Positions 4,271 to 59,036 of a stretch of DNA of 64,000 bases are shown here, piece after piece (within the stretch, counting starts at the first letter, position 1; the number at the start of each line of letters is the position of its first letter). Position numbers and translations under genes: made by a program. Under the pieces are notes generated by a model. The model saw only the letters and a program-made list of their open reading frames with translations, did not search any database and was not told the origin of the DNA. This DNA is from Ypsolopha sequella (taxonomy: Eukaryota; Arthropoda; Insecta; Lepidoptera; Ypsolophidae): assembly GCA_934047225.1 (NCBI GenBank), contig OW203989.1, positions 13,677,977-13,741,976 on the forward strand, written 5' to 3'.

Positions 4271-4442
4271 ACACTTTATAATAATAAAAATAAGTAATCA
4301 TACATACGTGTACTACAAATAAACTCATAAAATATTTGAATAAATAACAGAATATTAACGTACAAATAAAATAATATATCAATTTAAATATATTGGACGA
4401 TGTATACATGTCTACTATTAGATTTATACTACTATATTAGAT

Positions 4443-12023: not shown

Positions 12024-12359
12024 ATATGTATGTATGCATGTATGGATCCAATATTTAATAAGGGACTCAAAAGCATAGATAGGCATGCATGTCTTCTATT
12101 ATACTGCATCTATGTTCAAAAGAGAAGGCGTCAATACAATTTTTTAAAGGTAACAAACAATAGGCTCAAAAACTGAAAACAACTGTAACATATTGTGTAC
12201 TCTAATTATTATTAGAGTGCATTACAAACTTGAAAACAATCAGAAACAAATTAAAAAGCTCAAATACTTTGAAAAAAATCGTCGGGCCAGAATATTGTGT
12301 ACTTCTGTAAATTTGATATTTTATAGTTATATTGTTATTTTTTACTAATTAATTCTGTT
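12024..12359 (+). repeat. Direct duplication, copy A
   Basis: About 336 bases read as identical to 13322-13657, from ATATGTATGTATGCATG to TAATTAATTCTGTT. The copies are 1298 bases apart in the same orientation. It includes an ATTATTAGAGTGCATTACAA block also found at 14390-14610. The absence of visible differences implies a recent event or gene conversion. Confidence 0.8.
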
Positions 12360-13321: not shown

Positions 13322-13657
13322 ATATGTATGTATGCATGTATGGATCCAATATTTAATAAGGGACTCAAAAGCATAGATAGGCATGCATGTCTTCTATTAT
13401 ACTGCATCTATGTTCAAAAGAGAAGGCGTCAATACAATTTTTTAAAGGTAACAAACAATAGGCTCAAAAACTGAAAACAACTGTAACATATTGTGTACTC
13501 TAATTATTATTAGAGTGCATTACAAACTTGAAAACAATCAGAAACAAATTAAAAAGCTCAAATACTTTGAAAAAAATCGTCGGGCCAGAATATTGTGTAC
13601 TTCTGTAAATTTGATATTTTATAGTTATATTGTTATTTTTTACTAATTAATTCTGTT
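13322..13657 (+). repeat. Direct duplication, copy B
   Basis: The second copy of 12024-12359. Flanks differ completely beyond both ends, and no target duplication is evident. The shared start in an ATGT run suggests microsatellite-mediated duplication rather than transposition, but this is inference. Confidence 0.8.
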
Positions 13658-14389: not shown

Positions 14390-14610
14390 TAATTTATTAT
14401 TAGAGTGCATTACAATCTTGAAATCAATTAGAAATAAATTTAAAAGCACAAATATTTTGAATAAGTTCCTCCGGCCAGGAGTTGAACCTGTGACCTCCTG
14501 CTTACATGACAGGTAGGCTACCAACTGCGCCACCGAGGTTCGTATGTGGGACGACGAATTTGTTTCTGATTGATTTCAATTTTGTAATGCACTCTAATAA
14601 TAGTTAGAGT
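14390..14610. mobile_element. Inverted repeat enclosing a tRNA-like core
   Basis: The arms ATTATTAGAGTGCATTACAA (left) and TTGTAATGCACTCTAATAAT (right) surround a minus-strand tRNA-like sequence at about 14470-14545. Box A is TGGCGCAGTTGGTAG and box B CAGGTTCAACTCCTG. An intact anticodon stem can be drawn, but the D stem mispairs and U33 is lacking, so it is not a working tRNA gene. Confidence 0.6.
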
Positions 14611-31565: not shown

Positions 31566-31596
31566 TTTAAAACTCGCGTGAGCTGACATACTAAAT

Positions 31597-31750
31597 TATT
31601 ATTACATACGGCTTGAATACTCACGTGTGATTGTTGTTGACTATATGCCAACCGTTTCACCGATACAATTTCGGCATTATCAAAGTGAAACGGTTGGCAT
31701 ATAGTCAACAACAATCACACGTGAGTGTTCAAGCCGTATCTAATAATAAT
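31597..31750. mobile_element. Near-perfect hairpin MITE
   Basis: Arms of about 65 bases, from AATTATTATTA through ACGGCTTGAATACTCACGTG to GCCAACCGTTTCAC, are almost perfectly complementary around a 24-base loop. The upstream sequence TCGCGTGAGCTGACATACTAA also matches the right flank of the 7080-7830 element, so this is a compact family member. Confidence 0.8.
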
Positions 31751-31754
31751 TCAT

Positions 31755-35576: not shown

Positions 35577-35843
35577 ATGTTAATAATTTGCAATATTCCG
35601 GTAAACACTCTTACCACGCTATTCAAAAAGCAGGCTCAAGCACCGCCCGCCTTCCCGCATAAAACATGCACAAGCAAAGCAAGCAAGAAAAGCAAAAGCA
35701 TTTTCTTGCCTGTTATTCAAGATTGCTTTATTTTGTGCTCCTACTGCTTGCTTTGCTTGTGCATGTTTTATGCGGGTCGCCGGGCGGTGCTTGAGTCTGC
35801 ATTTTGAATGGCATGGTAAGAGTAATATTGCAAATTATTAATA
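35577..35843. mobile_element. Foldback element
   Basis: ATGTTAATAATTTGCAATATT, CTCTTACCACGC and GCACCGCCCGCC...GCATAAAACATGCACAAGC on the left are mirrored through GCTTGTGCATGTTTTATGCGG...GCGGTGCTTGAG to GCAAATTATTAATAT. Arms about 115 bp, well matched. Confidence 0.8.
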
Positions 35844-38239: not shown

Positions 38240-38243
38240 GTAG
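38240..38243. other. Target-site duplication, left (GTAG)
   Basis: GTAG immediately precedes TGTACTAAAC at the left end of the element and recurs at 55412-55415 after the right end. Four bases fits Ty3/gypsy-type or retroviral integration. Confidence 0.75.
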
Positions 38244-39448
38244 TGTACTAAACCCTCTTGTAATCCCTATTACTGCTCACACTGAACTCCATCGACCCGA
38301 ATAACAACCCACTTACAACCTACATAGTTTAACGTTTGGTGCTTAATAGAAATGATTTTAACAGATATATGGCCAAAGTGTGATCGTCAGATTAGAACCT
38401 TACGTAGCGCCTTAAGTAGTAACCCAAATTATTTAAAAGTGATTCAGAGATGTTGATAGCAAACAAACCCCTATTAAAAGTCCCATGCTGTTGTAAATTA
38501 TTAGTTATCTTTCACGTGCTAAGTAAATTGGACATAAAATAATTAAAACCAAATTCGTAGATTTAGATAGTAAAATCAGAGAATATAAAGTATTGGTAAT
38601 AATGTTCAGATTAGAAATTTCACTGTTTGTCAGTTAAGCCAATATATGAAAGTCATAGAGATAACACTTTGTAAACAAATCTAGATGTAAAATTCATTAA
38701 TGTTACAAATAATAAAAGGTGAATAAAATCTCTGTTGCAATTCTGCGCCAGTCAGCCTCTTAAGAGGCTATATGAATTTACTATATTAGACTATACCCGC
38801 TACTTTAGACGATACATCACATACAAATTTTGTTTGATTATGTTATGAATAAAATGCATTATTATTATTTTTTTTAATAACCACTACCAATAATTGGGGA
38901 TGGATGAGGTGAGGTATTTCTGAGTTTGAAATTTAATAATTTATTGATGATCAAAGCTGAATAGTATTCTAACAGCTAACCTTTATGTATGTTGTAGAAC
39001 TTATTACTCGATAGATACTTCTATACGAAAATTACTTATTTAGCTGGTAATCTTCGAATAAGTCCATAGGACAGTGAGTAAAATTCTCACATCTGTGATT
39101 ATCTGGTCAATAAAATAGAGACTCAAAGAAAGCCATATTGGCAACTTCTCAGAAGTACCTTCCCTTGGATGTGGAATACCCCCGTGACTTTTTTTAGTGT
39201 ATACTTTTTTTTTTTGAATTCTAAATTTAAGATTTATTTATTTATTTTTAATTTTACGCGCCTATGTTGGTTCCCTGACTACACAGCTCTGGTAAAGAAC
39301 CAACAAGAAATCCAGAGCGTCCCTACCATCATAGTAACCAAAACTACAAATGACACAAATAATCCAACAGAATGATTTCAGATTTCCAACTTATGGCTAT
39401 CTTGTGTTTCTGTACCAAATATATTTTATTTGTTCTTATGTCATTGGT

Positions 39449-40385
39449 AAGCTAAACTACCCCATTTCAGTGTATAGTTAGCTCGTGGCTGTATTTTGCC
39501 TGACAAAAGAACAAGTAACATCTATACAAATACACCAAATGTTACTAATTATATACTTGAGTAACAAACATTGAAATCACTCGTGTTGCACCACGTCCCA
39601 CTCAAAGATTCAGTCTCTTTAACAGATCTACTCAAATAGTGACTGACAGTTAAAATTAATTTCTTAGATACTGCTGGTAATACTCAACTTAAAGTTGCTA
39701 TGTCAATTTGACAAAACTATCTAGTAAAAAACTTAGACTTTCATATTCAGCGTACAGTCATTCTGTTTACTATTCAATAGAGAATTTCTATCAAGTCAAA
39801 ATTGCAAGTTGTTTCAGTAATAAACTTCTCTAATACAATCGTCTTTGTTGTATTTAATGCAAGTCAGATATGTACAAATTTCTACCAGGTTGGAATTTTA
39901 CCCATTTTCTAAAAATCTCCAAGTTTCAGTAAGGTTTTTACATAATAAGTCTCAAATATATTAAAACTTTTGAATACAATAAATTAGGCTTTCAACCCTC
40001 ATTTCATGTAGGAAAGTTTACTTTAAAAATCATTGATTTTCTAGTAATATGAAACTACTGTGACTTTCATCCTTAACAGTATTGCAGTTATTTATGTAGT
40101 CAATTTTATAACTACACTCAGTAGAATAATTTCAATATATTTTTAAAGAGAAATCTGCTCTAGGTAATGTAGTATTAAAAATACTAATAGAACTTTGTTT
40201 TTATTCTAAAGATGTATTCATTTAATTCCATTGACGAAGAACAACTTTTACTACCCCATATTTGGTGTATAGTATCAGTTAAGGCTTTTATTTTGCCAGA
40301 CAAGGGAAAGCATTTATGCAAACAAATACATCATGTTATGTACTTCAAGTTTATTGAACATTTATAAGAATTGAAATTATTCTCT
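39449..40385 (+). repeat. Diverged repeat pair inside the LTR
   Basis: About 120 bases at 39449-39570 (ACTACCCCATTTCAGTGTATA, TTTTGCCTGACAA, ATACAAATACACC) are recognisably related to 40248-40385 (ACTACCCCATATTTGGTGTAT, TTTTGCCAGACAA, AAACAAATACATC). An old duplication roughly 800 bases apart. The same pair occurs in the right LTR at +12568 to +12569. Confidence 0.5.
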
Positions 40386-40735
40386 TGAATAAAGATTTCC
40401 CGAACTATTTTCACGGTAATTAGTTTATTAGTTACTTACTCAATTGAGTAATAAAAGAAAATCCGAAACATTCTATATTTCATCTAGGTTCTACTCTGTA
40501 TCAATGCAGTCATTTCGACAAGGGAGTAAGTAAGTAAATACTGACTAAAAGGTTCGTCAGTCTGCTATACTCTATTTTGGATTCTTATATACCAAACTAT
40601 TTATTAGGCATATTTTGTGCCAAACTCAAGTCTCTTTATTTCTTGAAAGAAATACCTAAGTAAATACAATATTTTAAGAGATAATTAAGTGATGAAACTT
40701 ATGTTTCCTATCATTTCATATTTATTGCCAATATT

Positions 40736-40975
40736 AAAGCCCTATGCCCTAGCATTCAAAACTAGTGTTCTGTGGGCATATAAAACCCTCTTAGATAAAC
40801 AATGAAACTATTTCAGTATCAAAGCCCTATGCCCTTACATTCAAAATTGGACTTATAAAGCCCTCTCAAATAAACAATGAAACTATTTCAATATCAAAGC
40901 CCTATGTCCTTACATTCAAAATTGGACTTATAAAGCCCTCTCAGATAAGTAAACAATGAAACTATTTGTCAAACA
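40736..40975 (+). repeat. Three tandem ~77-85-bp repeats in the LTR
   Basis: Three successive units start AAAGCCCTATGYCCTWRCATT and contain AAACAATGAAACTATTT. The first unit is more diverged and longer. Present identically in the right LTR near 53305-53544. Confidence 0.8.
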
Positions 40976-41473
40976 AACTAGTCAACAACAACCTATTCCT
41001 GAACCACTAACTCTAATTTTCAGAGGTCCCTATCTACTTGAAAACTTGTAACCTATCATAATTGAATTTATTGACCTATTTTCCCTGAACAATGAAGAAA
41101 GTTACCTGAAACCTCCCACTATGCATAATTTCTAAAAAAACCTATTAATGTCCTAACAATAGACTTGAATTTTTGGAATTTACCTACCTAACATTTGGCC
41201 CTAAAATCAAATGTTCCTAGGCTTTTAAATGTGTGAATTTTCAAAGCTAGAGGTCCGTCACCTCACATTTACAATTAAACGTGTGTGTGGTTGTATATTG
41301 TGCTAGCAAACACCATACAACCCCTCAACTAATCGACAGAAAGAAGTGAGGCAAGTTGAAACCTCTCTGTGTGCCTAACACCCTAAAACTTTGCCCTACT
41401 CAGACAGGGGGTGATACAGTAGGTAAAAAGGACGTCACCCCGCTGGCTGGGATAGCCTATATGATCATGTGTA

Positions 41474-41513
41474 TATATAAATATATAGATATGAGACCAT
41501 GACCAGCTCAGTC
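41474..41513 (+). promoter_or_regulatory. Plus-strand TATA plus initiator in LTR
   Basis: TATATAA at 41474-41480 lies 30-36 bases upstream of the A in TCAGTC (41508-41513), a match to the insect initiator. The transcript would run antisense to the inferred element. The same motif sits at 54043-54082 in the right LTR. A sequence-based prediction only. Confidence 0.45.
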
Positions 41514-41515
41514 AG

Positions 41516-41659
41516 ATGACAAAGGACAGAACAAATCGCAGCCTCTTCACGGCTCGGACGCTTTGCCATAAACATCGCCTTTCATGGAGGATGTGTTTCC
41601 AGTATGTAAAACTGGCGCAAGGCCATCCCAGACGCTTGCTTCCCTCCAGAGGAGGTTAA
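41516..41659 (+). CDS. 47-codon basic open frame just after predicted start site
   Basis: The first ATG after the plus-strand initiator opens a 47-residue frame rich in arginine and lysine (MTKDRTNRSLF...). Repeated at 54085-54228 because the LTRs are identical. No family recognised. It could be an upstream ORF of an antisense transcript or chance; the GC-richer local composition mildly favours function. Confidence 0.2.
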   Translation: MTKDRTNRSLFTARTLCHKHRLSWRMCFQYVKLAQGHPRRLLPSRGG

Positions 41660-42205
41660 AACTAGACTCTGTCGTTCACACCAGTAGGTGACCCGAGCCT
41701 TAATCCAGTGCGACTTCCGCTCTGTAAGATCCCTGCCTGACTCTTCAAGATTTCCCAGCGACTAGCCCTATGCCACTACCCTGGTACATCTTCCCGTTTC
41801 CACGTCCGGCATTACTAAGAAGAGACCATACTCCCTTCCCTCCCCATCAACCCCTGAATCGACCTATGCACTATTACATTATTTAGGTACGTACTTTAAT
41901 TTCGGAACTTGAAAAGACGATTATCGAACCCTTTACATAACGCGGAATCTAGCTCGTTCGCTCGTTCACCCTACACGAATTCAAACGCGTGTGTCAATCG
42001 CCGAGTCGGAAAAGTCAAAAACTATTGACCATAACCGAATCTATTTACGAAAAAAGGGCATTCCGCCACCTAAAAGCTAACGCGACGCGAAATGGTCCCG
42101 AGACCTAACGAACAGATAGATTGACACATTCCGTATTTTAATCGCAAATTCCGAAAACAAAATCACTATTAAAACAAACAAAAACTTCCCCAAATAAACT
42201 CAAAA

Positions 42206-42406
42206 ATGAACTACACCTTTAAAACTTCTTGCAGCACTTCCACTGACGACGGTGTAAAAATGAATGCCCCCCACCCTACATTTCCACCCATTTATATACT
42301 AAGTGTGATATTAACGTTATCAGTGCTATCGGCGTCAACGGTGCTAACGGTGTTATGTGCGCTTTCGTGCAGAATGAACAAAAGTGAGACAACCAAACAA
42401 GAGTAA
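42206..42406 (+). CDS. 66-codon open frame with one membrane segment
   Basis: Starts in good insect context (CAAAAATGA). The predicted peptide has a polar N-terminus with an N-glycosylation-type NYT at residues 2-4, a hydrophobic segment at about residues 29-55 (IYILSVILTLSVL...), and a basic tail (RMNK), suggesting N-out, C-in. It is antisense to the inferred element and overlaps the minus-strand promoter, so it may be chance. The copy at 54775-54975 is identical. Confidence 0.25.
   Translation: MNYTFKTSCSTSTDDGVKMNAPHPTFPPIYILSVILTLSVLSASTVLTVLCALSCRMNKSETTKQE
42261..42298 (-). promoter_or_regulatory. Minus-strand TATA plus initiator in LTR
   Basis: On the minus strand TATAAA (42296-42291) is followed 31 bases on by GCATTC (42267-42262, A at 42265), close to the TCAKTY initiator. 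This direction agrees with the primer site and purine tract. The equivalent in the right LTR is 54830-54867, giving a U3 of about 580 bases and an unusually long R-U5 of about 4 kb. Confidence 0.45.
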
Positions 42407-42845
42407 TAGAGATGGCAACATAACAACAAAACATGGCAACAGCATATACTCGGCGTAAGCAGGACAGGACAAAAATATACAAGTAAGAGTGAAAGAGATA
42501 GACACATGGTGACAAGCCTAAGGCGTCATCTAGTCTACGTGGCAACAACTTGGCAGTTGCGTGACAACAACAGCTAATTTAGGGTTCACGCATAATTGGA
42601 AACCATAATGTTTGAAATTGAAAGTTTATTCTTAATTCCTTCCATATTGGACCGATTGTTTGGGCCGGTGGTTGAGTTTACTGTATTTATCATTTAAAAT
42701 CAGTTATTCTACGCGATCGATTTCAATTTGCTTTATTTATTTCAACGTGATTTATTTGATTACATACAACAATCTTCCTGCCCATTATCATAACATTTAT
42801 TTGTGAATTGAGACGTGAACAGATGAGGTACGATCTGTCACAGCG

Positions 42846-42853
42846 CTTTCCCC
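42846..42853 (-). other. Polypurine-tract candidate
   Basis: The minus strand reads TTTTGGGGAAAGCGC directly before the LTR start TGTGAC. The run GGGGAAAG is three bases from the LTR boundary, where the plus-strand DNA primer of an LTR retrotransposon is expected. It is short, and the CGC spacer is atypical. Confidence 0.5.
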
Positions 42854-42947
42854 AAAATTTACGCAGATTAGCAAGCCTTAAACGAAGGAAATTTTCTCTT
42901 CCATCATTCACAAATACACGATAACAATGTTCACTCTGATATTAATT

Positions 42948-43675
42948 TATTATCACCTTTCTCCCAGACCGTTCACGTGTGGTGTGTGTTTATACCTAGT
43001 AGTTAATCAAAACTTAACCGATTGAGACTCCAAACCATTGCTTAATTGTTCACGAATAATCTGTCCGTCAAACAAGGAGATCTGAAATTCCCAGAGAGAT
43101 CGTTTGTGAGACGACCTTGTCCTAGTGACACCGCAAAGATTTTCTAGACAAATTCTATTTTTTTCAATTTAAGTAGACACGCTTTGCGCCTCTTTCATAA
43201 ACCAAGATCACTTTAATAGCTATCCATCCAGATACCCAAATGAGCAATTGTTCAGCTCGGAATCTCTCCCAGCATTAAATTCTAACCAACTATTCGGAGA
43301 ATGTATAGTGTTGCCGAAGATAGCATTAGCTGCGTGTAGAGTTAAACCTTTAAGTATCACAGTATATACTGTCCTTTAGTCTTTAAGACTCTAACCTAAC
43401 ACCAATTCAACTTAAAAGTTTATGTGTAGTATAGAGTCTCCAGGATATGATGACAATAAATTTAAGTCCACACCTTCGAACTGTTGTCTTGTTAGGGCCC
43501 TTTTTGTTGTCAACGTCATAGTCATATGTCAAAGTCGTTTCATTCCATTCCTTCCACCGACACACTCTGACTTCCTCATCCGCTCTTACAATTTCCCTAA
43601 CAAGCCACCAGCCCTACAAATATGAACCTATTTAATTTTAATTACCTCCATTTAACATGACTATCTTTTGAATAC
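42948..43675 (+). repeat. Interior duplication, unit A
   Basis: About 0.7 kb related to unit B at 44398-45130, sharing CTCCCAGA, GTGTGGTGT, TCAAACAAGGAGA, GAGATCACTTTAATAGCT, TTCGGAGAATGTATAG and TCTCCAGGATA in the same order, with many substitutions and indels. The pattern of change shows no coding constraint. Confidence 0.75.
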
Positions 43676-43765
43676 CACCATTACCTTTTAATACCTCCTT
43701 AACCTTTTTAATACCACCTTTACCTTTTTAACAACACCTTTATATACCTTTTAAAACTAACTTAA

Positions 43766-44380
43766 AATATAACTTATTTTAAATTTACTCAAAGCCCTTT
43801 TAAACGCCAAAATGCAAGCATTCGCTGATTGTCAACTACGCTTACACTCATGAGTGCATATCTACACAAAGCTAATTACGCAGAGTGCTAGACACGTAAA
43901 GTGTCATATACGCCAATTGTCAACATTGGCAAATATGCCCATTCACAATTACATAAAGAATAAAAAATAAAATATAACTTATTTTAAATGTACGCAAAGT
44001 CGTTTTAAACGCCAAAATGCAAGCATTCGCTGATTTTCAACTACGTTTACACTCATGAGTGCATATCTACACAAAGTTAATTACGCAGAGTGCTAGACAC
44101 GTAAAGTGTCATATACGCCAATTGTCAACATTGGCAAATATGCCCATTCACAATTACATAAACAATAAAAAATAAAATATAACTTATTTTAAATGTACGC
44201 AAAGTCCTTTTAAACGCCAAAATGCAAGCATTCGCTGATTTTCAACTACGCTTATATTCATGAGTGCATATCTACACAAAGTTAATTACGCAGAGTGCTA
44301 GACACATAAAGTGTCATATACGACAATTGTCAACATTGGCAAATATGCCCATTCACAATTGCATAAAAAATAACCATATC
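43766..44380 (+). repeat. Three 205-bp tandem repeats
   Basis: Units begin at about 43766, 43971 and 44176 with AATATAACTTATTTTAAAT and contain CAAGCATTCGCTGATT, CTCATGAGTGCATATC and CCAATTGTCAACATTGGCAAA. They are more alike than units A and B, which flank them, so they arose later. Confidence 0.85.
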
Positions 44381-44397
44381 TAAATAAATTCGGTATT

Positions 44398-45130
44398 TAT
44401 TATCATGTTCCTCCCAGAATGAATATGTGTGGTGTAATTTTTATACCAAACGGTTAATCAAAAATTAAATCAGTTGAAATTCTAATCTATAGGTTTATTA
44501 ACTACAGATAAATATCCATCAAACAAGGAGAACTCAATCCTTCAAAGAAGTTAGTTGTGAATTAACTCTACCCTAGTGGTAACACAACAACCTTCTAGCC
44601 AAATTCTATTTTTTCAATTTGAACAATAGATGTGCCTTTGTGTCTCTTTCTTGAATCGAGATCACTTTAATAGCTCTCAAGATAAGTACCCAAATAACTA
44701 ATTCCCCAGTCTAGAATCTCTTCCAATGTTAAATTCTAATCAACCATTCGGAGAATGTATAGTTGCCGAGAAAATATGCATCAGCTGCGTGTGTAGTGAA
44801 ACTATTTAGAATCGCAGTTTATACTGCTGATTAGTCAAGATGACTCTAACCTAACTCCTTTTCAACTAAATAGTTTGTTGTGTAGTGTAATGTCTCCAGG
44901 ATAACACGACAATAAACATGAGTCCACATTCCTGAAACTGTTGTCTCGCTAGAGCCCTTTTCTTTGCCAAAGACAAAGTTAATTGTCATGGTTGTATCTT
45001 TCTATCTCTTCCACCAACAACATACTTCCTTCCTCATTCTCTCTAACACTTTCTCTAACGAAGCACCAGCTCAACAAATATGGACAAATCTAAATGATTT
45101 AAGTACCTCTTATTTAAAATATTATCTTTT
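44398..45130 (+). repeat. Interior duplication, unit B
   Basis: Diverged partner of unit A, about 1450 bases away, in the same orientation. Together with the 205-bp array it accounts for about 2.2 kb of the interior. Confidence 0.75.
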
Positions 45131-46277
45131 AATACCTCTTAAGCTAATACCTTTTGAGCTAACTTATAAACTTACTTATAACATAACTAACTACCACTAA
45201 TTAAAATAAAACCCAAATTAATTTCTATAATTTAATATATTTTTTTTTTATTTCAATAAGACAACGAGAAATTGGAATAAACTGCTTTTAATAAACTTCC
45301 GAATATTTTTACATTTCATTTCTTAATAAATTAATTTATTAAAATACGATCTTGTACTTTTTTATTTTTATTTAATTTACTATCAATTGACAAAGCATTT
45401 ACACAGTCAACATATTAAAATTTCATAAATTTTTAATTTTCTTCTCTACTTCCCCCCAATCTTAAATTTTCTCTTCTCTACTTTCCCCCAATCTTACTTC
45501 CCTTTGTACTTAATAAGTAAGTTCTTCCTCATCTACCTGTAAAATATAAAACTTCATCAGTGGCGTACTGTCTACTTCCTTTTCCATTTGTCCTTAAATA
45601 TTTCATTAAATAAAACAAGACTTTTTTGTAATTAAATAGATTTTATTTAATTCCTTAAAGTAAAATTCTAACTACCACTGAAAGTCATTAACAGTTTTTT
45701 TTTTCCATTTAATTATCAAATTCTGTCTAATTTTTAATGACCGAAGGTATTATTTCCCTGCAAGTAAACAAAAATAGTAAATACTATAATTAATATTGAC
45801 AACCCTACAAATTATAACCAGAAGATGCTAAATTATTTAAGATATTTTTAAGTTATTCTAGTTTTTACTAACAGTAGTAATAATTGCTTTAAAATATCAT
45901 TCTAATGAATTCAGTAGGTATCGTCAGGGAACCTCACTTTCATAGACTAAACCTTTAAATTTCGCAACCGATTACTTCAAGCTATATAAACTAAAGTGTA
46001 GGTTGTTCAGTTGTACTTCGTTCACAAGATATATATAATTTAATTTGGGCCATCAGCTTCATAAAAGTATACTAGCACATAGGCACTAGTTGCATGTACA
46101 GCCCAAATCTAGTAAATAAATGCTGACGTCACGCACGCGTCCTGTGCGAAATCAAATGTAAAATAAAGGCTATCATACCAAACATAAATATTATATTTTT
46201 AATACAACATCTACATAAATAAAACAACCTATACGAATAAGAAGATAGTATAAAAACACAAAAAATGAATTCGGATT
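45131..46277. other. Interior AT-rich stretch
   Basis: No gene recognised. T- and C-rich on the plus strand, with runs such as CTTCTCTACTTCCCCCCAATC near 45440-45500 repeated twice. Open frames are short and hydrophobic by composition. Confidence 0.4.
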
Positions 46278-46362
46278 ACGTTAGCGTCACTAGAGATTCG
46301 AACTTCCGGTTTCCTACTTCCTAGGTGACCATTCAACCACTCGGCCACAGAGACATTTGATT
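46278..46362 (-). ncRNA. tRNA-like sequence inside the giant element
   Basis: The minus strand carries CTGTGGCCGAGTGGTTGAATG (box A) and AGTTCGAATCTCTAG (box B) with an intervening GGTCACCTAGGAAGTAGG. It resembles a leucine/serine-type tRNA head. Pairing is imperfect, so a SINE head or pseudo-tRNA is likelier than a gene. Confidence 0.55.
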
Positions 46363-48600
46363 ATTGGTGTGAAAATAACATACAGTATCCACCGGTCAGA
46401 TTAAAACACTACCTAATTTACTTATATTTCTTTTTGTTCTCTAAAAATTAAATGTTAAGCTAGCCATTATTTATAAGATATTTATCTACTTTAACTTTAA
46501 GAAAAACTTCTAGATCAATAGATTTTTGCATTTATCAAAGTACAACAAAGATATTTTTTTGTACAACTCAGTTCTCGATCTAACCCTTCAACACATAAGT
46601 TGCGATCCTCGTGAGTTCGCCATCCAGATCTTTAATCAATATAAATTGTTCTTCACTGTCTACATATATTAAAGATACTAATTACGCAACCCTGAAATAC
46701 CCTGAAGTTATCGTCCAAGACTATAACCAAACCAACACGCAATCTATAACCTTTTCTACAGTACTATTAACACGTCGATCCCTTGTCGTACTACTAATTT
46801 ACTCCTCTCTCTTGTATGTAAGAAAAGTTTACTTCCCCTTAATAAAATAAAGTTTTGACGGTATTATTTATTTTCTATTCGAAACAACGTACTTACATAT
46901 CTCACCTAACAATATACTTTTTCTCTCAATTTTATCAGAAATCATTATTTTGGACCATCAATAAATCAGCAAAACCTCTTAATTTTATATTACTCTTTTT
47001 ATACTACATCCTCACTTCGGTAGGCACCCAAATTTTCTACTAATAACTTATTCCCATTTTAAATTTACACTTACAGATTCTTATTTGATTTATCAACACT
47101 TGTTACTTTTCATACTGGACCCACTAATAGAAAGTGACACTATACATACAGAACCCTGATTCTATTACCCATTACCAATTCATTCATCATTCCATATCTA
47201 TTATTTGTAAAATCCAAAGTCTAAACATTATAGGTAGGTATTTACTTTGTGTATGATGACAATATCAATAGTACATTAATTAAATTTAAATATATATATA
47301 TATTTTAACTACTTTACTATATTTAACCTTTCCCCATTCTCAACTAACTAAAATAAATACTATTTTCCATAATTGTTTCTTTGGTACTAACATAATATTA
47401 ATTGTTACTCCTTCTCAAAACATGATATGAAAACCTACGCAACTTACACCTGCTCAAACTCTAATATATACAATACACTCATACAGTACATACTACAAAT
47501 ACCGCCTTAGACAACACCCCCATATTTACTTTGAGAATAACCAAAAAGAAAACAATTATTTAAATAAAACAGCTTTAGTTTATTTACCCCTGTAACCAAT
47601 CGTCGGAACCCATGCATCTACTTATGTTTTCACAAAGGATCCCCAAAACTGCCTAATGAAGAAGGTGGTCTATGCTTACAAAGCAAGACAATACATCTAA
47701 ACCTCGCGCACGGATCCCTGCCGATGCGAATCGATAATTAACCATAAAACATAAAAATACAATAAATAGACATATCACACATTAATATATTTATTACGTA
47801 CAATAAATTTCCAATTATTTTTAGATAACCGTCGTCTATATTTTACACGTCTATATATTTGTAACTCACTCATCAACATTTGCACTAGGTACCTACTGAA
47901 CGAAATTCCATGTGGTTCTTTCTCGTCATGATTTTTCCAGAATTCTAAATAAATATAAGATAATATATTTAGTGAAAATAAACAAACTCCAACAATAATA
48001 AAATTCTCTTGTTATATTGAAATTCGACATTTGACGGTCACCCCCCTACTGTCTCCCGGCATCAAATTTTCCTAAACATTGAAGTAAAGTAAATATACTT
48101 GAATATTATGTAATTTATTTCAACGCAAATGAAACCGTAAATAAAGCCAGAAGTTTAAAATACAAACTGTTTGGCAAGTACCAAATCTCGAAATGACTTT
48201 ACTTGCAAAGCTAACATAAATCTCTAGTAATAAGAACAAATAATATAATCATTTGATAAAAGGAATTTGGAACATTTTTAACTCGTCATGAAACATAATG
48301 TATTAACGCCATCTATAAATTTATTCCGGTACCAACTACCTAACTTCTTGTTACGCTTGTTCGTCAATAAGTGTCCCAATTTTGACGACCCAAAAAGTTC
48401 CTAGTTTATGCACTAGATGGTACATACTGCTAATATTTTAATAGAAAATAAACAACTGTAGATACCTAAGTATTTAATAATAACTCAACTCCATACTACA
48501 ACCATCGACATAAAGAAGAAATATATACTACACTTATTTCATTCTTATATCGCCAACCGAATATCGAAATTGTTGCTAGATCAAAACACCGGCGGCGAAA
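46363..48600. other. Interior AT-rich, C-over-G stretch
   Basis: No gene recognised on either strand; open frames stay under 80 codons. In lines 47041 and 47461 C outnumbers G by 11 to 2 and 19 to 3, showing the strand skew. Confidence 0.45.
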
Positions 48601-48649
48601 GACAGAGATAAAGCGACGAGTTTTGACGGTAGCGCAAACGAGACAAGCG

Positions 48650-48711
48650 TATAAAGCAGGACGGTTGTATTAACTAGGTTTTGCAGGATCACACACATGA
48701 ACGGGTAAGTA
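48650..48711 (+). promoter_or_regulatory. Candidate promoter and first exon with splice donor
   Basis: TATAAAG at 48650-48656 follows a CpG-richer block (48580-48650). Downstream, ATG at 48697 is followed by a strong splice donor ACGG|GTAAGTA at 48705. Acceptor-like sites follow at 49272, 49731 and 50419. Strand is opposite to the inferred element. Weak evidence overall. Confidence 0.3.
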
Positions 48712-49272
48712 CTATATCTTCTTATTTTGTGTTTCTATCTAAGAACTAGGAATATGACAAACAATTTTACAGAAACCCATGTGACACATCAACACAGCGA
48801 ACAATGTTACAAAGTTTTACCTACACACTGTTTCAACTTACTTCGGTAATTTTCTACTTTCCCCATTCCTTTTAAGCATTACGATACTCTTGGTACGCTC
48901 ACTAGCCACTACTTTAAACGCTATCTGTCTAAACAATCAAACATTTTGAAATTAATATAAAGTTGGTGTACACAATCATTAACTCTCTCATAATTTAAAT
49001 TTAACTGACATAAGTGCAAATTGAATTAATTTATTTATTTGTTTTTGTTAATTATACAATAAACCTTTTTTATCCATAATAAATCCAGCTTTTAAATAAT
49101 TTCTACCCACGTCCAAACGCAAACCCAGCGTTCAATGATCATTGTCATCAAAACGGAACAGACCCTGTGGTTACATCCATCAATATACTCTATGGTTACA
49201 TTCTACATTTCGGTTTAGCTCTTTATATATATGAACAGCTTTCCTATAGCTAGCGCTTTAAAAATCTTGCAG

Positions 49273-50505
49273 ATGGCTAAAGTGATGCTAAGTTGCTAAC
49301 TGTGACAAACTCTACATACCAAACAAAACAAATTCAAACTGAAGCTGACAGACGCCATTTGCTCAGTGACGGACGCTTTCTTTATTTAAAATTAAATTCC
49401 ACGACGGACCTACCGCTAAAGAAGCTACCTACACTTATAAGTGCTTATAAGACACCGAAAATGATCCATGAGCATATCTACTGTAACTCGGACGCAAAAT
49501 TATCTCAAAAGAAAGGTATGTGAACTTTTACAAACGTAAACATTTCCAGTAAGATTCTACTTCGAAATTATTAGATTTCCACTTAATTATTACACGAAAA
49601 CGAAGCTTTTCATGCGATAGTCGTTGTTTCCAAGAGCCAACAAGCATTAAAATTCTTGAATTATGTTTGTACAAATACAAACTTTCATCACCATAAACAA
49701 ACATTTCATAAACCTTTTCATTTCCTTACAGATGTCGGTCACACTGTCGATAAAAGGGCAAGACACCGGATTTGCCTTATGGAGTTCTCTACAACATAAC
49801 TTCTGAAGAATTGTACAAAGTTGTAGCACTACCTACATCCTGAATGGACATGGATGGACAGAATCTCCCCATAGTTCCGTGTAAAAGTTATATGTTACCA
49901 TCTACCGTACGTCTAACAGGCTTCACGCATACAAGGTACCTATATACATCTACTTACTTTCAAAGTTAAATCCAATTCATCAATCATTAGGTTGCCGTTT
50001 AATTATACTAAAGTCCCAAAGCCTCTAACCTCTGTAGTTCTATACATTACATACATACACTCATGCCTGTCTCTCAGAGGGTAGGCCTTTCATACATCAG
50101 TTGCTCATTAATGAAAATTGTAGATATGCAATTTTTACTAACTTGACTGTGTTGGCAGAATAACTTTCTCTTTAATTTTATAGCCGCATAGTTTATATCA
50201 CAACCGCTAATGGACCTACTTCATCCCTACTTGTCAATCTTTGTATTTGAATACTTGACTCCATAAACAAAGCAAAATACAATACATAACCTTTGTCAAA
50301 ATATTGTTGGCCCTTAATACTGGTACGTTCATTGAAAGACCCTGAATTGAAAATTTAGCCCGCTGTACTAAAAAGCTAAAGATAAAGTATTATAATAATT
50401 GACTCATTTTATTTTCCAGATTTTGGATCCGTTATTGATGTCCCTAAATCTTCAACCAAGACGGAGACTGTACATCAGTACTGGAGTACTTCCCCTGACA
50501 CCTAA
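49273..50505 (+). other. Putative spliced exons in the interior
   Basis: Possible exons are 49273-49515 (acceptor CTTGCAG, donor AAAG|GTATGTG), from 49732 (acceptor TTTCCTTACAG) and from 50420 (acceptor TTTATTTTCCAG). The frame through the first exon continues 23 codons into the second. The exon at 50420 has a 27-codon open frame ending at 50505. No complete reading frame joins all parts, so a non-coding transcript or a decayed captured gene is equally possible. Confidence 0.2.
50046..50100 (+). repeat. 'ACTCATGCCTGT' repeat inside the giant element
   Basis: ACATACATACACTCATGCCTG and TCTCTCAGAGGGTAGGC match the lepidopteran repeat at 32336-32402. The interior has therefore itself accepted genomic repeats. 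Confidence 0.6.
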
Positions 50506-50788
50506 GACAAGTGACGCAGTCAATGGAACCATCAGAAGTTAACTTTCCTATCAAAGAAGCTAATGTTTACCTTGATCATTGTTGACATATTTACATTGTC
50601 TTCCTCCACGGGACTAAATTTACAATATACTGTTTACCTCTTATAAATACAAATATTTATCTATCGTAACACTCTAAATCACTTCTCCTATTTACACGAA
50701 CAGCAAATTGTACCCAAAACTGGGTGACATTACTGTATCAAACCATTTCTATAAACACCAAATCACTTGAAATAAGCCCAAAATACCT

Positions 50789-50808
50789 ATACTGGTCACG
50801 GCTACCCA
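50789..50808 (-). other. tRNA-His-like primer binding site
   Basis: Three bases from the right LTR, the minus strand reads TGGGTAGCCGTGACCAGTAT. As I recall the insect tRNA-His 3' end, its complement is TGGTGCCGTGACCAGGAT. The block GCCGTGACCAG matches over 11 bases and both start TGG, with two extra bases between. The position and the TGG are what an LTR retrotransposon needs to prime minus-strand DNA; the two-base insertion is a weakness. Confidence 0.55.
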
Positions 50809-53800
50809 TATTGTACTAAACCCTCTTGTAATCCCTATTACTGCTCACACTGAACTCCATCGACCCGAATAACAACCCACTTACAACCTACATAGTTTAA
50901 CGTTTGGTGCTTAATAGAAATGATTTTAACAGATATATGGCCAAAGTGTGATCGTCAGATTAGAACCTTACGTAGCGCCTTAAGTAGTAACCCAAATTAT
51001 TTAAAAGTGATTCAGAGATGTTGATAGCAAACAAACCCCTATTAAAAGTCCCATGCTGTTGTAAATTATTAGTTATCTTTCACGTGCTAAGTAAATTGGA
51101 CATAAAATAATTAAAACCAAATTCGTAGATTTAGATAGTAAAATCAGAGAATATAAAGTATTGGTAATAATGTTCAGATTAGAAATTTCACTGTTTGTCA
51201 GTTAAGCCAATATATGAAAGTCATAGAGATAACACTTTGTAAACAAATCTAGATGTAAAATTCATTAATGTTACAAATAATAAAAGGTGAATAAAATCTC
51301 TGTTGCAATTCTGCGCCAGTCAGCCTCTTAAGAGGCTATATGAATTTACTATATTAGACTATACCCGCTACTTTAGACGATACATCACATACAAATTTTG
51401 TTTGATTATGTTATGAATAAAATGCATTATTATTATTTTTTTTAATAACCACTACCAATAATTGGGGATGGATGAGGTGAGGTATTTCTGAGTTTGAAAT
51501 TTAATAATTTATTGATGATCAAAGCTGAATAGTATTCTAACAGCTAACCTTTATGTATGTTGTAGAACTTATTACTCGATAGATACTTCTATACGAAAAT
51601 TACTTATTTAGCTGGTAATCTTCGAATAAGTCCATAGGACAGTGAGTAAAATTCTCACATCTGTGATTATCTGGTCAATAAAATAGAGACTCAAAGAAAG
51701 CCATATTGGCAACTTCTCAGAAGTACCTTCCCTTGGATGTGGAATACCCCCGTGACTTTTTTTAGTGTATACTTTTTTTTTTTGAATTCTAAATTTAAGA
51801 TTTATTTATTTATTTTTAATTTTACGCGCCTATGTTGGTTCCCTGACTACACAGCTCTGGTAAAGAACCAACAAGAAATCCAGAGCGTCCCTACCATCAT
51901 AGTAACCAAAACTACAAATGACACAAATAATCCAACAGAATGATTTCAGATTTCCAACTTATGGCTATCTTGTGTTTCTGTACCAAATATATTTTATTTG
52001 TTCTTATGTCATTGGTAAGCTAAACTACCCCATTTCAGTGTATAGTTAGCTCGTGGCTGTATTTTGCCTGACAAAAGAACAAGTAACATCTATACAAATA
52101 CACCAAATGTTACTAATTATATACTTGAGTAACAAACATTGAAATCACTCGTGTTGCACCACGTCCCACTCAAAGATTCAGTCTCTTTAACAGATCTACT
52201 CAAATAGTGACTGACAGTTAAAATTAATTTCTTAGATACTGCTGGTAATACTCAACTTAAAGTTGCTATGTCAATTTGACAAAACTATCTAGTAAAAAAC
52301 TTAGACTTTCATATTCAGCGTACAGTCATTCTGTTTACTATTCAATAGAGAATTTCTATCAAGTCAAAATTGCAAGTTGTTTCAGTAATAAACTTCTCTA
52401 ATACAATCGTCTTTGTTGTATTTAATGCAAGTCAGATATGTACAAATTTCTACCAGGTTGGAATTTTACCCATTTTCTAAAAATCTCCAAGTTTCAGTAA
52501 GGTTTTTACATAATAAGTCTCAAATATATTAAAACTTTTGAATACAATAAATTAGGCTTTCAACCCTCATTTCATGTAGGAAAGTTTACTTTAAAAATCA
52601 TTGATTTTCTAGTAATATGAAACTACTGTGACTTTCATCCTTAACAGTATTGCAGTTATTTATGTAGTCAATTTTATAACTACACTCAGTAGAATAATTT
52701 CAATATATTTTTTAAAGAGAAATCTGCTCTAGGTAATGTAGTATTAAAAATACTAATAGAACTTTGTTTTTATTCTAAAGATGTATTCATTTAATTCCAT
52801 TGACGAAGAACAACTTTTACTACCCCATATTTGGTGTATAGTATCAGTTAAGGCTTTTATTTTGCCAGACAAGGGAAAGCATTTATGCAAACAAATACAT
52901 CATGTTATGTACTTCAAGTTTATTGAACATTTATAAGAATTGAAATTATTCTCTTGAATAAAGATTTCCCGAACTATTTTCACGGTAATTAGTTTATTAG
53001 TTACTTACTCAATTGAGTAATAAAAGAAAATCCGAAACATTCTATATTTCATCTAGGTTCTACTCTGTATCAATGCAGTCATTTCGACAAGGGAGTAAGT
53101 AAGTAAATACTGACTAAAAGGTTCGTCAGTCTGCTATACTCTATTTTGGATTCTTATATACCAAACTATTTATTAGGCATATTTTGTGCCAAACTCAAGT
53201 CTCTTTATTTCTTGAAAGAAATACCTAAGTAAATACAATATTTTAAGAGATAATTAAGTGATGAAACTTATGTTTCCTATCATTTCATATTTATTGCCAA
53301 TATTAAAGCCCTATGCCCTAGCATTCAAAACTAGTGTTCTGTGGGCATATAAAACCCTCTTAGATAAACAATGAAACTATTTCAGTATCAAAGCCCTATG
53401 CCCTTACATTCAAAATTGGACTTATAAAGCCCTCTCAAATAAACAATGAAACTATTTCAATATCAAAGCCCTATGTCCTTACATTCAAAATTGGACTTAT
53501 AAAGCCCTCTCAGATAAGTAAACAATGAAACTATTTGTCAAACAAACTAGTCAACAACAACCTATTCCTGAACCACTAACTCTAATTTTCAGAGGTCCCT
53601 ATCTACTTGAAAACTTGTAACCTATCATAATTGAATTTATTGACCTATTTTCCCTGAACAATGAAGAAAGTTACCTGAAACCTCCCACTATGCATAATTT
53701 CTAAAAAAACCTATTAATGTCCTAACAATAGACTTGAATTTTTGGAATTTACCTACCTAACATTTGGCCCTAAAATCAAATGTTCCTAGGCTTTTAAATG

Positions 53801-54042
53801 TGTGAATTTTCAAAGCTAGAGGTCCGTCACCTCACATTTACAATTAAACGTGTGTGTGGTTGTATATTGTGCTAGCAAACACCATACAACCCCTCAACTA
53901 ATCGACAGAAAGAAGTGAGGCAAGTTGAAACCTCTCTGTGTGCCTAACACCCTAAAACTTTGCCCTACTCAGACAGGGGGTGATACAGTAGGTAAAAAGG
54001 ACGTCACCCCGCTGGCTGGGATAGCCTATATGATCATGTGTA

Positions 54043-54082
54043 TATATAAATATATAGATATGAGACCATGACCAGCTCAGTC
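54043..54082 (+). promoter_or_regulatory. Plus-strand TATA plus initiator, right LTR copy
   Basis: Duplicate of 41474-41513. From here a plus-strand transcript would leave the element into the right flank at 55412. Confidence 0.4.
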
Positions 54083-54829
54083 AGATGACAAAGGACAGAA
54101 CAAATCGCAGCCTCTTCACGGCTCGGACGCTTTGCCATAAACATCGCCTTTCATGGAGGATGTGTTTCCAGTATGTAAAACTGGCGCAAGGCCATCCCAG
54201 ACGCTTGCTTCCCTCCAGAGGAGGTTAAAACTAGACTCTGTCGTTCACACCAGTAGGTGACCCGAGCCTTAATCCAGTGCGACTTCCGCTCTGTAAGATC
54301 CCTGCCTGACTCTTCAAGATTTCCCAGCGACTAGCCCTATGCCACTACCCTGGTACATCTTCCCGTTTCCACGTCCGGCATTACTAAGAAGAGACCATAC
54401 TCCCTTCCCTCCCCATCAACCCCTGAATCGACCTATGCACTATTACATTATTTAGGTACGTACTTTAATTTCGGAACTTGAAAAGACGATTATCGAACCC
54501 TTTACATAACGCGGAATCTAGCTCGTTCGCTCGTTCACCCTACACGAATTCAAACGCGTGTGTCAATCGCCGAGTCGGAAAAGTCAAAAACTATTGACCA
54601 TAACCGAATCTATTTACGAAAAAAGGGCATTCCGCCACCTAAAAGCTAACGCGACGCGAAATGGTCCCGAGACCTAACGAACAGATAGATTGACACATTC
54701 CGTATTTTAATCGCAAATTCCGAAAACAAAATCACTATTAAAACAAACAAAAACTTCCCCAAATAAACTCAAAAATGAACTACACCTTTAAAACTTCTTG
54801 CAGCACTTCCACTGACGACGGTGTAAAAA

Positions 54830-54867
54830 TGAATGCCCCCCACCCTACATTTCCACCCATTTATATA
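54830..54867 (-). promoter_or_regulatory. Minus-strand TATA plus initiator, right LTR copy
   Basis: Duplicate of 42261-42298. It is correctly placed to start full-length element RNA near 54834 reading toward the primer site at 50808. Confidence 0.45.
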
Positions 54868-55411
54868 CTAAGTGTGATATTAACGTTATCAGTGCTATCG
54901 GCGTCAACGGTGCTAACGGTGTTATGTGCGCTTTCGTGCAGAATGAACAAAAGTGAGACAACCAAACAAGAGTAATAGAGATGGCAACATAACAACAAAA
55001 CATGGCAACAGCATATACTCGGCGTAAGCAGGACAGGACAAAAATATACAAGTAAGAGTGAAAGAGATAGACACATGGTGACAAGCCTAAGGCGTCATCT
55101 AGTCTACGTGGCAACAACTTGGCAGTTGCGTGACAACAACAGCTAATTTAGGGTTCACGCATAATTGGAAACCATAATGTTTGAAATTGAAAGTTTATTC
55201 TTAATTCCTTCCATATTGGACCGATTGTTTGGGCCGGTGGTTGAGTTTACTGTATTTATCATTTAAAATCAGTTATTCTACGCGATCGATTTCAATTTGC
55301 TTTATTTATTTCAACGTGATTTATTTGATTACATACAACAATCTTCCTGCCCATTATCATAACATTTATTTGTGAATTGAGACGTGAACAGATGAGGTAC
55401 GATCTGTCACA

Positions 55412-55415
55412 GTAG
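55412..55415. other. Target-site duplication, right (GTAG)
   Basis: GTAG directly follows ...CTGTCACA and equals 38240-38243. The first G is also shared with the next interior base of the left LTR, so the boundary could be read one base longer, but TGT...ACA symmetry supports this call. Confidence 0.75.
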
Positions 55416-57418: not shown

Positions 57419-57688
57419 TACCTATCGACGCTTTAAAGACGTGTTAAATCACATTATAAAGTTTTGTTTGCACTTTGAATTCAAATTTACCAAATACCAA
57501 CAAAGCAATAAAAAAAGCGTTGAATAAAATCCATCAGTTTGAGGTGTTTCGGTGGAGTTAGTCGGCTTAATTGTTTCCGTGTTTGGAACGTTTTGAGCAT
57601 TCACTACTGACAATTGGCATAGGTATTGTGGAATGAAGTGAGAATTTTCAGTCTATTGTTAATTTAAGAATTGAAGGAAGGTATTTAT
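57419..57688. other. Unassigned stretch
   Basis: No gene or bounded repeat recognised. Confidence 0.4.
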
Positions 57689-57888
57689 AATGAACAGAAA
57701 ATCACTTGTACTATCCCACAAATTTATTTAGTACTTCCTGACCGGTTTCGCCTTTATGACATTATCGAAGGAATTCATATAAGATCTTAATTACACATAT
57801 TAATTCCTTTGATAATGCCATAAAGGCAAAACCGGTCAGGAAGTACTAAATAAATTTGTGGGATAGTACAAGTGATTTTCTGTTCATT
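57689..57888. mobile_element. Near-perfect 200-bp hairpin
   Basis: AATGAACAGAAAATCACTTG, TACTATCCCACAAATTTATT and TAGTACTTCCTGACCGGTTT on the left are exactly mirrored on the right. Arms are about 90 bases with a handful of mismatches near the centre, and the loop is about 25 bases. A young snap-back MITE or a locus producing long hairpin RNA. Confidence 0.85.
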
Positions 57889-59036
57889 ATGTATTGCAAG
57901 TTCTACCAAGTGCCAAAAATCAATAGTGTGAACATTCTGAAGGTATTAAAGTTTTGTGTAAAAATACCAATTTATCTCAGATCATCCATATGAATTAACC
58001 ATTAAATTAATTTAATTGTTTGGATTATTTAGTATTGAAATTACCTGTATTAAAAAATAAATACAAATTATTAGGTATAATGTTTTACGGTTTGGTAGTC
58101 AAATCACTAAACAGAAGATGTAAGTTGAAATTGCCATCTTCTTCATATTTCATCAAATGTTTCAGTAACTTTTTTCACTACACTTTCCCACTGCGCGTTA
58201 CCTTCGTCCTTGTATTAGGTATGTAGTTTGGTAATACGCGGCCGATGTTGCAGTGTAACGTGAATCTCGCGTTCCCGTCCAAATATGGATGAATGCCATA
58301 CATATTTAGGCCGTTATGTTTGACATGCGCATTGACATATTTGCCATTAATTTTCCGTAATGATATGTATTTGAAATTACGTTGTGGTCTAGCTTCATTT
58401 TAATAGTTTAACAGAAATAGCGATTAAATAGTTAGGTTAGTTTAGTAAGTATTTTGTAAATTTGCGTGGGAATACCTAAACTGCGTATAATTTGAGTTAA
58501 TAATATGACTACATTAAACTATAGGCCTTTTGTAAAACGGTACATCTTTGAGTCTTGCGCTTGTTGTTATTGAATCAGAAGAACAATTTTGGAGAGAACG
58601 AATTTGACGCTCCGCACTAATTAAAAGTTGTCCAAGTTTACACATAATTTATGTCCACCATTCCGAGTGTACTCCATCCCTTGTTAAATTGTAGGTCCAC
58701 TCTGAACAAACATATTACAGAAAGTTTACTTTGTTGGGGTAAATTAGTAACCTATTACAGCGATATGGACTGTAATTTAGAGGAAAGGTACGTGTATAGT
58801 TTTGGTCCTTTTGTCTTGTTGATTTGGGTATACCTTTCTCAGTAGCTTAAACATTTAATTATTTACTTTACTCAGGAATTAAGGTTGGACCTGACCCTAG
58901 AACATGAACAAAAGTCTGGCTTTTGAAGGTTCTTTGGAAGAAATGAGGACTCTCTTTGAATTGAAAATAAAATATGATCTGTTGATCTCTTATTAAGTCA
59001 ATGTACTTATATGCAATGTCTTACTTGAGTCTGTCT
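57889..59036. other. Unassigned stretch
   Basis: No gene recognised. Open frames at 58020-58226 and 58651-58845 lack motifs. The patch 58240-58340 is GC-richer and contains a short ATATTT-centred inverted repeat. Confidence 0.4.

What the first reader, a model, noticed from the sequence alone, without database searches (positions are those of the whole stretch)
38244..55411. Very young 17-kb LTR element with 4.6-kb LTRs and no coding capacity
Seen: two direct repeats of about 4.6 kb differing by one T, TGT...ACA ends, GTAG duplicated at both borders, and no gag/pol/env frame on either strand. Known: LTR elements with no proteins but long interiors (LARDs, described from plants) move in trans; LTRs are identical at insertion. 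Inference: a recently active, trans-mobilised giant element in an insect, possibly an undescribed family. LTRs above 4 kb with a non-coding interior are very unusual for insects.
Basis: partly seen in the sequence, partly recalled or inferred. Interest (0 to 1): 0.92.

Follow-up and report, generated by a model that had tools for sequence, protein, structure and literature searches.

The report
Giant non-coding retroelement with helper found
A moth- or butterfly-like genome carries dozens of young 17-kb mobile elements that encode no protein, and the same genome holds a rare 24-kb protein-coding relative that most likely supplies the machinery to move them, an arrangement known mainly from plants.

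Summary
Window 38244-55411 is a complete LTR element: 4599/4600-bp LTRs differing by one indel, GTAG on both sides, no coding frame beyond chance. It is read on the MINUS strand (tRNA-His-like primer site 50792-50808; purine tract within 42843-42862). I paired 57 element interiors; 50 of 57 are 6.5-9.5 kb, and 35 of 57 were seen to hold the non-coding-specific segment. I read borders of 17 copies; in 15 both ends were readable and all 15 have matching 4-bp flanks, three of them solo LTRs. A coding partner exists: 4 of 144 RT places carry an identical RT in an open 1178-aa Ty3/gypsy pol; one element is 23,878 bp with GCAC on both sides. It shares LTR, primer site, about 2.2 kb of leader and 2.2 kb of 3' region with the window element. 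The window copy belongs to a recombinant lineage: leader like the coding copy (8 differences in 900), 3' part like non-coding copy C10 (48 shared sites to 1). LARD-like elements were named in insects before; mosquito cases lack master copies. New here: size, partner and exchange record. Trans-mobilisation is inferred, not shown.

The parts
38240..38243 (.). target-site duplication GTAG (left)
38244..42842 (-). 3' LTR (in the sense of the element), 4599 bp
   Evidence: purine tract directly adjacent
40779..40967 (.). 75-bp tandem repeats inside the LTR (second copy 53348-53536)
42843..42862 (-). purine-tract region, sense GTAAATTTTGGGGAAAGCGC, directly before the 3' LTR; TTTTGGGGAAAGCGC identical in 13 of 13 interiors read
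42843..45423 (-). 3' part of the interior shared with the coding partner (88-100% in 250-bp tiles)
43763..44373 (.). three 205-bp tandem repeats (93-96%)
45424..46954 (-). segment specific to the non-coding type, standing where the partner has about 8.8 kb with gag and pol; a 1341-bp probe (45560-46900) gives 40 rows at 93-100% (38 full or nearly full length; 40 of 143 candidates scored), 35 of them inside paired family interiors
46955..48592 (-). diverged leader, about 67-82% to the partner where alignable
48593..50811 (-). 5' leader shared with the partner (87-99% in 250-bp tiles; first three tiles 99%)
50792..50808 (-). primer-binding site, sense TGGGTAGCCGTGACCAG: the complement of the tRNA-His(GTG) 3' end with two extra bases
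50812..55411 (-). 5' LTR (in the sense of the element), 4600 bp
55412..55415 (.). target-site duplication GTAG (right)

Best explanation
This is a very recent insertion of a multi-copy, non-coding LTR retrotransposon (LARD-like) in a lepidopteran-type genome. Its RNA, read from the window's minus strand, keeps only the cis parts: LTRs, primer site, leader, 3' region and purine tract. It is most likely packaged, reverse-transcribed (tRNA-His primer) and integrated by Gag-Pol of a rare 23.9-kb Ty3/gypsy relative in the same genome, with which it shares descent and from which it differs by lacking the gag-pol block. SHOWN: structure, duplications, copies, partner, shared cis parts, mosaic sequence. 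INFERRED: trans-mobilisation, co-packaging, tRNA-His as primer, lepidopteran host.
For: Family: 36 LTR matches and 51 interior matches in the own assembly; 64 purine-tract/LTR junctions, 54 window-like primer-site junctions and 16 exact tRNA-His sites (5 of these 16 pair with the family), 57 paired interiors, 50 of 57 at 6.5-9.5 kb. Insertion signature: 17 copies examined, 15 with both borders, all 15 with identical 4-bp flanks (12 full, 3 solo LTR). Youth: 0-2 substitutions between LTRs in each of 9 copies. Partner: 4 of 144 RT rows are 100% identical with a 1178-aa open pol; G-patch, RVT_1, RNase H, H2C2 and rve above Pfam cut-offs, aspartyl protease below its cut-off (E 0.00047); C19:23393116-23416993 is 23,878 bp with GCAC/GCAC and LTR pieces identical over 1001 and 214 nt. 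Exchange: over the first 900 nt 37 sites join window to coding C3 and 4 to non-coding C10; in the last 2.7 kb 1 against 48; other copies with the non-coding segment also carry the coding-type leader, e.g. C1:25.7 with 3 differences in 900.
Against: No expression, particle or mobilisation data. The coding-type leader occurs in many copies, so the exchange need not have happened in this copy, and its direction is unresolved; from 900 to 1500 nt the window differs from both comparators more often than it sides with either (28 sites against 5 and 8). 52 of 57 primer sites carry two extra bases against tRNA-His, which repeated priming would be expected to correct; the exact form goes with ATT instead of ATA before it, so it may come from a sister family and not from the tRNA. 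Part of the partner's leader is only 67-82% like the window's. Near the other end of the LTR coding and window copies are only about 96% identical. The host order is inferred.
Confidence: 0.83

Rival explanations
1. The non-coding family is moved by a different helper, for instance the sister family with an exact tRNA-His primer site, and the coding partner found here only recombines with it.
For: A sister locus (L075) shares LTR end (89%) and leader (84-86%) and has the exact tRNA-His site; 11 of the 16 exact-site loci did not pair with this family's purine tract, one of the 11 was read; related pol frames at 81-89% identity exist.
Against: The identified partner shares 98.8% of the last 1.1 kb, 99% of the first 750 nt of leader and 998 of the first 1001 LTR bases with the window copy, much closer than the one sister locus read.
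Confidence: 0.15
2. Copies spread by segmental duplication or gene conversion, not by retrotransposition.
For: At least three tandem arrays share LTRs (C6:22.1 Mb, C6:11.5 Mb, C20:1.0 Mb).
Against: 15 of 15 copies with both borders readable (17 examined) have matching 4-bp flanks and differing outer flanks.
Confidence: 0.02
3. The interior hides a gene that standard tests miss (spliced or very diverged).
For: Strong strand asymmetry (sense GC skew +0.27) runs through the interior; 8 of 9 copies checked share 92- and 93-aa frames; a weak sub-cut-off Pfam hit to Sterol-sensing in an LTR frame.
Against: Frame lengths are at the chance level; no Pfam match at cut-off in 6 of 23 frames scanned; no gag/pol remnant; the partner's untranslated ends have the same skew.
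Confidence: 0.05
4. Assembly artefact: a duplicated contig end.
For: Near-identical repeats are what a false duplication would look like.
Against: Same architecture at dozens of places, with different flanks at the 15 places read.
Confidence: 0.01

Closest known systems
LARD (large retrotransposon derivatives) of barley and relatives
   Same: LTRs of about 4.4 kb, non-coding interior, no protein (sizes as quoted in PMC3532108, passage seen; PBS and PPT recalled)
   Different: Interior 8.0 kb instead of about 3.5 kb; insect-type host; a partner sharing LTRs is identified here
Non-coding LTR elements of Culex quinquefasciatus (38 families, PMC3286476, passages seen)
   Same: Insect, LTRs, PBS, duplications, no coding sequence
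   Different: In the table rows that I saw the LTRs are 208-315 bp; the authors found no master copy; the Culex elements carry long tandem repeats
Ogre (plants) and Burro (planarians) giant Ty3/gypsy elements (PMC6431247, passages seen)
   Same: Giant Ty3/gypsy element; Ogre with LTRs of 1.9-6.5 kb and total 16-25 kb resembles the coding partner
   Different: The partner has gag and pol in about 4.7 kb; no further sense frame of 80 aa or more was listed in the interior read, only an antisense MADF fragment and other antisense frames
TRIM / Helenus / Ajax small non-autonomous LTR elements (PMC10886601, passages seen)
   Same: Non-coding LTR elements that depend on autonomous counterparts; the paper names tRNA-His for one bivalve gypsy
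   Different: TRIMs are under 1 kb; no giant LTR or interior
Lepidopteran Ty3/gypsy pols (Plutella xylostella 76%, Parnassius mnemosyne 71-72%)
   Same: Closest named relatives of the pol; the Plutella protein and many unnamed ones list a G-patch domain, the Parnassius rows do not
   Different: Their LTRs and untranslated regions were not examined

Membership tests
LTR retrotransposon | two LTRs with TG...CA ends and short target-site duplication | tested here: met
   15 of 15 with both borders readable (17 examined)
LTR retrotransposon | PBS next to 5' LTR and PPT next to 3' LTR | tested here: met
   13 of 13 interiors read at each end; the PBS is an imperfect tRNA-His complement in 12 of 13
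LARD | no coding capacity between the LTRs | tested here: met
LARD | long LTRs (about 4.4 kb) and long interior conserved among copies | tested here: met
   LTR 4.6 kb; larger interior matches 94-98%, with 87-88% in a 0.9-kb stretch
LARD | interior of about 3.5 kb, grass host | tested here: not met
   interior 7969 bp; the named relatives of the partner's pol are insect. Hence 'LARD-like', not a member of the barley family
LARD | mobilised in trans by an autonomous partner | tested here: inconclusive
   partner and exchange found; movement itself not testable here
Ty3/gypsy (partner) | pol order PR-RT-RNaseH-IN | tested here: met
   (protease below curated cut-off, the rest above)
Ty3/gypsy (partner) | gag frame upstream of pol | tested here: inconclusive
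   a 400-aa open frame (247 + 1 + 152) precedes pol in another frame and overlaps it by 43 nt, but no Pfam gag or zinc-knuckle match
Errantivirus / endogenous retrovirus | env frame after pol | tested here: not met
   no sense frame of 80 aa or more after pol in L064 (one copy)

The most novel reading that the evidence does not exclude
A two-component giant system in an insect: a rare 24-kb gypsy helper and a non-coding 17-kb parasite that outnumbers it about tenfold (38 loci with the full non-coding segment against 4 coding ones), both very young, kept compatible by repeated RNA recombination with the helper at both ends while its middle drifted. The several kilobases of non-coding RNA would then be functional cis-acting cargo (packaging or dimer sites), not debris.
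Probability: 0.4. Interest if true: 0.68.

Novelty: new variant of a known kind. Interest (0 to 1): 0.57.

Why it matters
Non-coding LTR families in insects have been reported without a master copy (PMC3286476). Here the non-coding and coding forms sit in one genome, both very young, with a readable record of exchange. That makes it directly testable which cis sequences a non-coding RNA needs to borrow another element's machinery, and how such parasites affect their helper. It also puts a 24-kb gypsy element with about 4.7 kb of coding sequence in an insect-type genome.

Tried and rejected
Rejected: assembly duplication; plus-strand reading of the element (PBS and PPT fit the minus strand); copia or BEL class for the partner (Pfam order, with class rules recalled). 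The exact tRNA-His site in copy C12:22.2 Mb looked at first like proof of tRNA templating, but a linked ATA to ATT change and a sister locus with the same site make recombination an equal explanation, so it is not counted as proof. I first took the window copy itself for the recombinant; a recount shows the coding-type leader in other copies too, so the claim is now about its lineage, and confidence went from 0.85 to 0.83. The 336-bp perfect repeats at 12024/13322 looked like a second small LTR element; they lack TG...CA ends and the unit is found nowhere else among the 40 of 6410 candidates scored, so I take them as a local duplication. A donor for the non-coding-specific segment was not found: of 40 rows (40 of 143 candidates scored) 35 lie in paired interiors, 3 beside unpaired junctions of the family and 2 partial ones (C59, C54) in unknown surroundings.

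Led nowhere: paper searches for giant LTR elements (0 papers) and for butterfly non-autonomous gag-pol elements (0 papers). The statement that I met no insect case with an identified partner at this size rests on the listings, in an open-licence library only.
Full report
OBSERVATION. The LTRs are 38244-42842 and 50812-55411, with no substitution over 4599 aligned bases and one extra T at 52708. GTAG flanks both ends. The interior is 7969 bp. Its longest open stretch (92 aa) is at the chance level: 136 of 200 Markov sequences reach it. Six of 23 stop-to-stop frames of 60 aa or more were scanned and none reaches a Pfam cut-off. Five gag/pol pieces of the later-found partner leave no trace in the element (best E 0.41).

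STRAND. On the minus strand the 5' LTR is followed by ATA and TGGGTAGCCGTGACCAG, and the 3' LTR is preceded by TTTTGGGGAAAGCGC, a normal primer site and purine tract. The genome's tRNA-His(GTG) gene ends in CCTGGTCACGGCA; with CCA its complement begins TGGTGCCGTGACCAGG. The window's site is this sequence as far as CCAG with two extra bases (G and A around the T). Of 13 interiors read, 12 have the site with the two extra bases and 1 (C12:22.2 Mb) has the exact complement over 15 bases. In the whole assembly 54 window-like sites (up to 2 mismatches) and 16 exact sites (which also lists 6 rows with 3 mismatches) were found; 5 of the 16 pair with this family's purine tract. One of the other 11 was read (L075) and is a sister (LTR end 89%, leader 84-86%); the other 10 were not read.

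FAMILY. The own assembly (866.8 Mb, 151 contigs) gives 36 LTR matches (32 of 796 candidates scored) and 51 interior matches (20 of 326 scored). Pairing primer-site and purine-tract junctions gives 52 + 5 = 57 interiors; 50 of 57 measure 6.5-9.5 kb and 7 are 11-16.6 kb. The non-coding-specific segment was seen in 35 of the 57. Of the 7 long ones, 4 (C15, C27:11.5, C12:19.4, C10:25.1) hold that segment and so are non-coding copies with extra DNA, 2 are coding and 1 (C16) is unresolved. I read borders of 17 copies: in 15 both ends were present and all 15 show the same 4 bases on both sides, including three solo LTRs (C18:6.45, C21:11.22, C20:24.43 Mb); in 2 (C13, C17) the second border was not in the stretch fetched. 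The LTR start motif occurs 330 times with up to 2 mismatches (first 100 places listed), against about 120 needed for the pairs, so up to about 200 may be solo or broken LTRs or those of close sisters; only three were checked.

AGE. Within-copy LTR differences are 0, 0, 2, 1, 1, 0, 1, 0 and 1 substitutions in nine copies (two compared over a shortened 3' LTR), against 0.04-1.3% between copies. All nine came from the best-scoring matches to the window LTR, so they are biased towards young ones. With a recalled lepidopteran rate of about 3e-9 per site and generation, zero in 4.6 kb means roughly under 100,000 generations.

PARTNER. Two interiors of 14.6 kb stood out (C3:22.8 and C19:23.4 Mb). The C3 one was read in two pieces. 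It shares its first 2.3 kb (91-96%) and last 2.2 kb (96-99%) with the window interior, and between them carries a 400-aa open frame in the place of gag and an overlapping 1178-aa pol frame. Pfam finds G-patch, reverse transcriptase, RNase H and integrase above cut-off and aspartyl protease below it; the gag-like frame has no match. No sense frame of 80 aa or more follows pol. The same reverse transcriptase, 100% identical with a 1178-aa open frame, lies at 4 of 144 scored places (3219 candidates): C3, C19 and two in a tandem array on C20. The C19 element is 23,878 bp with 4621-bp LTRs and GCAC on both sides; its LTRs are identical over the 1001 and 214 bases compared. The C3 copy has its 5' LTR start 1.8 kb further out than expected, so its 5' LTR holds extra DNA, and its duplication was not tested. 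The closest named pol relatives are from Plutella (76%) and Parnassius (71-72%); Heliothis, Helicoverpa and Tribolium follow (120 of 829 rows listed; unnamed proteins reach 79%). The host is therefore taken as lepidopteran, which also fits some 30 large contigs; this is inference.

RELATION. Tiled identity shows the window leader 99% like the C3 coding copy for the first 750 nt, 87-98% to about 2.2 kb, then 70-82% or no match. The next 1.5 kb has no match to the partner, which there has about 8.8 kb with gag and pol; then 88-100% to the purine tract. The LTR is 99.7% like the coding copy's in its first 1001 bases but only about 96% in its last 1 kb. At informative sites among window, coding C3 and non-coding C10, the window sides with coding C3 by 37 to 4 in the first 900 nt, by 5 to 8 from 900 to 1500 nt (where 28 sites set it apart from both), and with C10 by 48 to 1 in the last 2.7 kb. 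Over 900 nt of leader the window differs from coding C3 at 8 sites and from C10 at 41 of 881. Other copies show the same coding-type leader; C1:25.7 Mb, which holds the non-coding segment, differs from coding C3 at 3 of 900. So leaders have passed between coding and non-coding types, but the event may precede this copy, and its direction is open. The second coding group (C20), of which 357 nt were compared, is close to neither leader in particular (11, 11 and 8 differences). Template switching between two RNAs in one particle is the ordinary way for such exchange (recalled), and is the best evidence here that the two types share particles. The middle of the non-coding type has diverged to about 70-80% from the partner, so the type is older than its present copies.

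COMPOSITION. The sense strand has GC skew +0.13 in the LTR, +0.27 in the window interior, and +0.25 to +0.29 in the partner's leader, gag-pol and 3' region; 39 overlapping 8-kb stretches of the window outside the element (the two flanks set end to end) lie between -0.03 and +0.02. Its cause is unknown.

MECHANISM. Most likely: transcription from the LTR on the minus strand, packaging by Gag of the coding relative through signals in the shared leader, tRNA-His-primed reverse transcription, and integration with a 4-bp stagger. Structure and relatives are shown; each biochemical step is inferred. Recombination between the long LTRs would yield the solo LTRs and the tandem arrays.

COMPARISON. It works like a LARD (about 4.4-kb LTRs, about 3.5-kb interior; sizes from PMC3532108, passage) but has an interior twice as long and an insect-type host. 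The label LARD has been used for insect repeats by annotation pipelines: honey bee 3.10% of the genome (PMC4028053, passages), yellow stem borer 8.84% (PMC10923946, passages), whitefly (PMC9143410, passages). Culex has 38 non-coding LTR families without a master copy (PMC3286476, passages). A named partner of this size was not met in those passages or in the search listings named under Tried and rejected. Giant gypsy elements are known as Ogre and Burro (PMC6431247, passages).

VERDICT. A real, young, multi-copy, non-coding LTR element with its probable helper found: a new variant of a known kind.

Noticed in passing
G000 C6:22106348-22136061, C6:11500721-11526285, C20 around 1002613-1030038: Tandem arrays LTR-interior-LTR-interior-LTR with equal periods (12,558; 12,768; about 21,108 bp), the last one of coding copies; expected counterpart of solo LTRs from recombination between LTRs.
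   Followed up: partly
L063 (C3:22818802-22826200), minus strand, frame at about 5173-5421: Antisense MADF-domain fragment (Pfam E 2.5e-5) in the long leader of the coding partner, upstream of gag.
   Followed up: no
L064:416-1315: G-patch domain between the gag-like frame and protease of the partner's pol, also listed for the Plutella relative and many unnamed ones.
   Followed up: no
L075 (C4:21419450-21419850): Sister locus with exact tRNA-His primer site, LTR end 89% and leader 84-86% like this family; pol relatives at 81-89% identity exist elsewhere in the genome.
   Followed up: partly
window 38244-55411: Strong strand asymmetry (sense G over C, up to 0.44 in a 1-kb step) over the element and the partner, with none of that size in the flanks.
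   Followed up: partly
window 12412-12735: A SINE-like repeat of about 325 bp present in at least 39 other loci at 94-98% (40 of 6410 candidates scored), inside a region flanked by two perfect 336-bp direct repeats (12024-12359, 13322-13657) with no LTR signature.
   Followed up: yes
window 2471-2869, 7211-7628, 1389-1657, 4442-4703, 35607-35823, 57687-57890, 31594-31751: Self-complementary palindromic stretches of about 160-440 bp (77-91%), like foldback or MITE elements.
   Followed up: no
window 14467-14539: Borderline tRNA-Thr (30 bits against a cut-off of 29), possibly SINE-derived.
   Followed up: no
window 8106-8360: 16-bp minisatellite, 16 copies.
   Followed up: no
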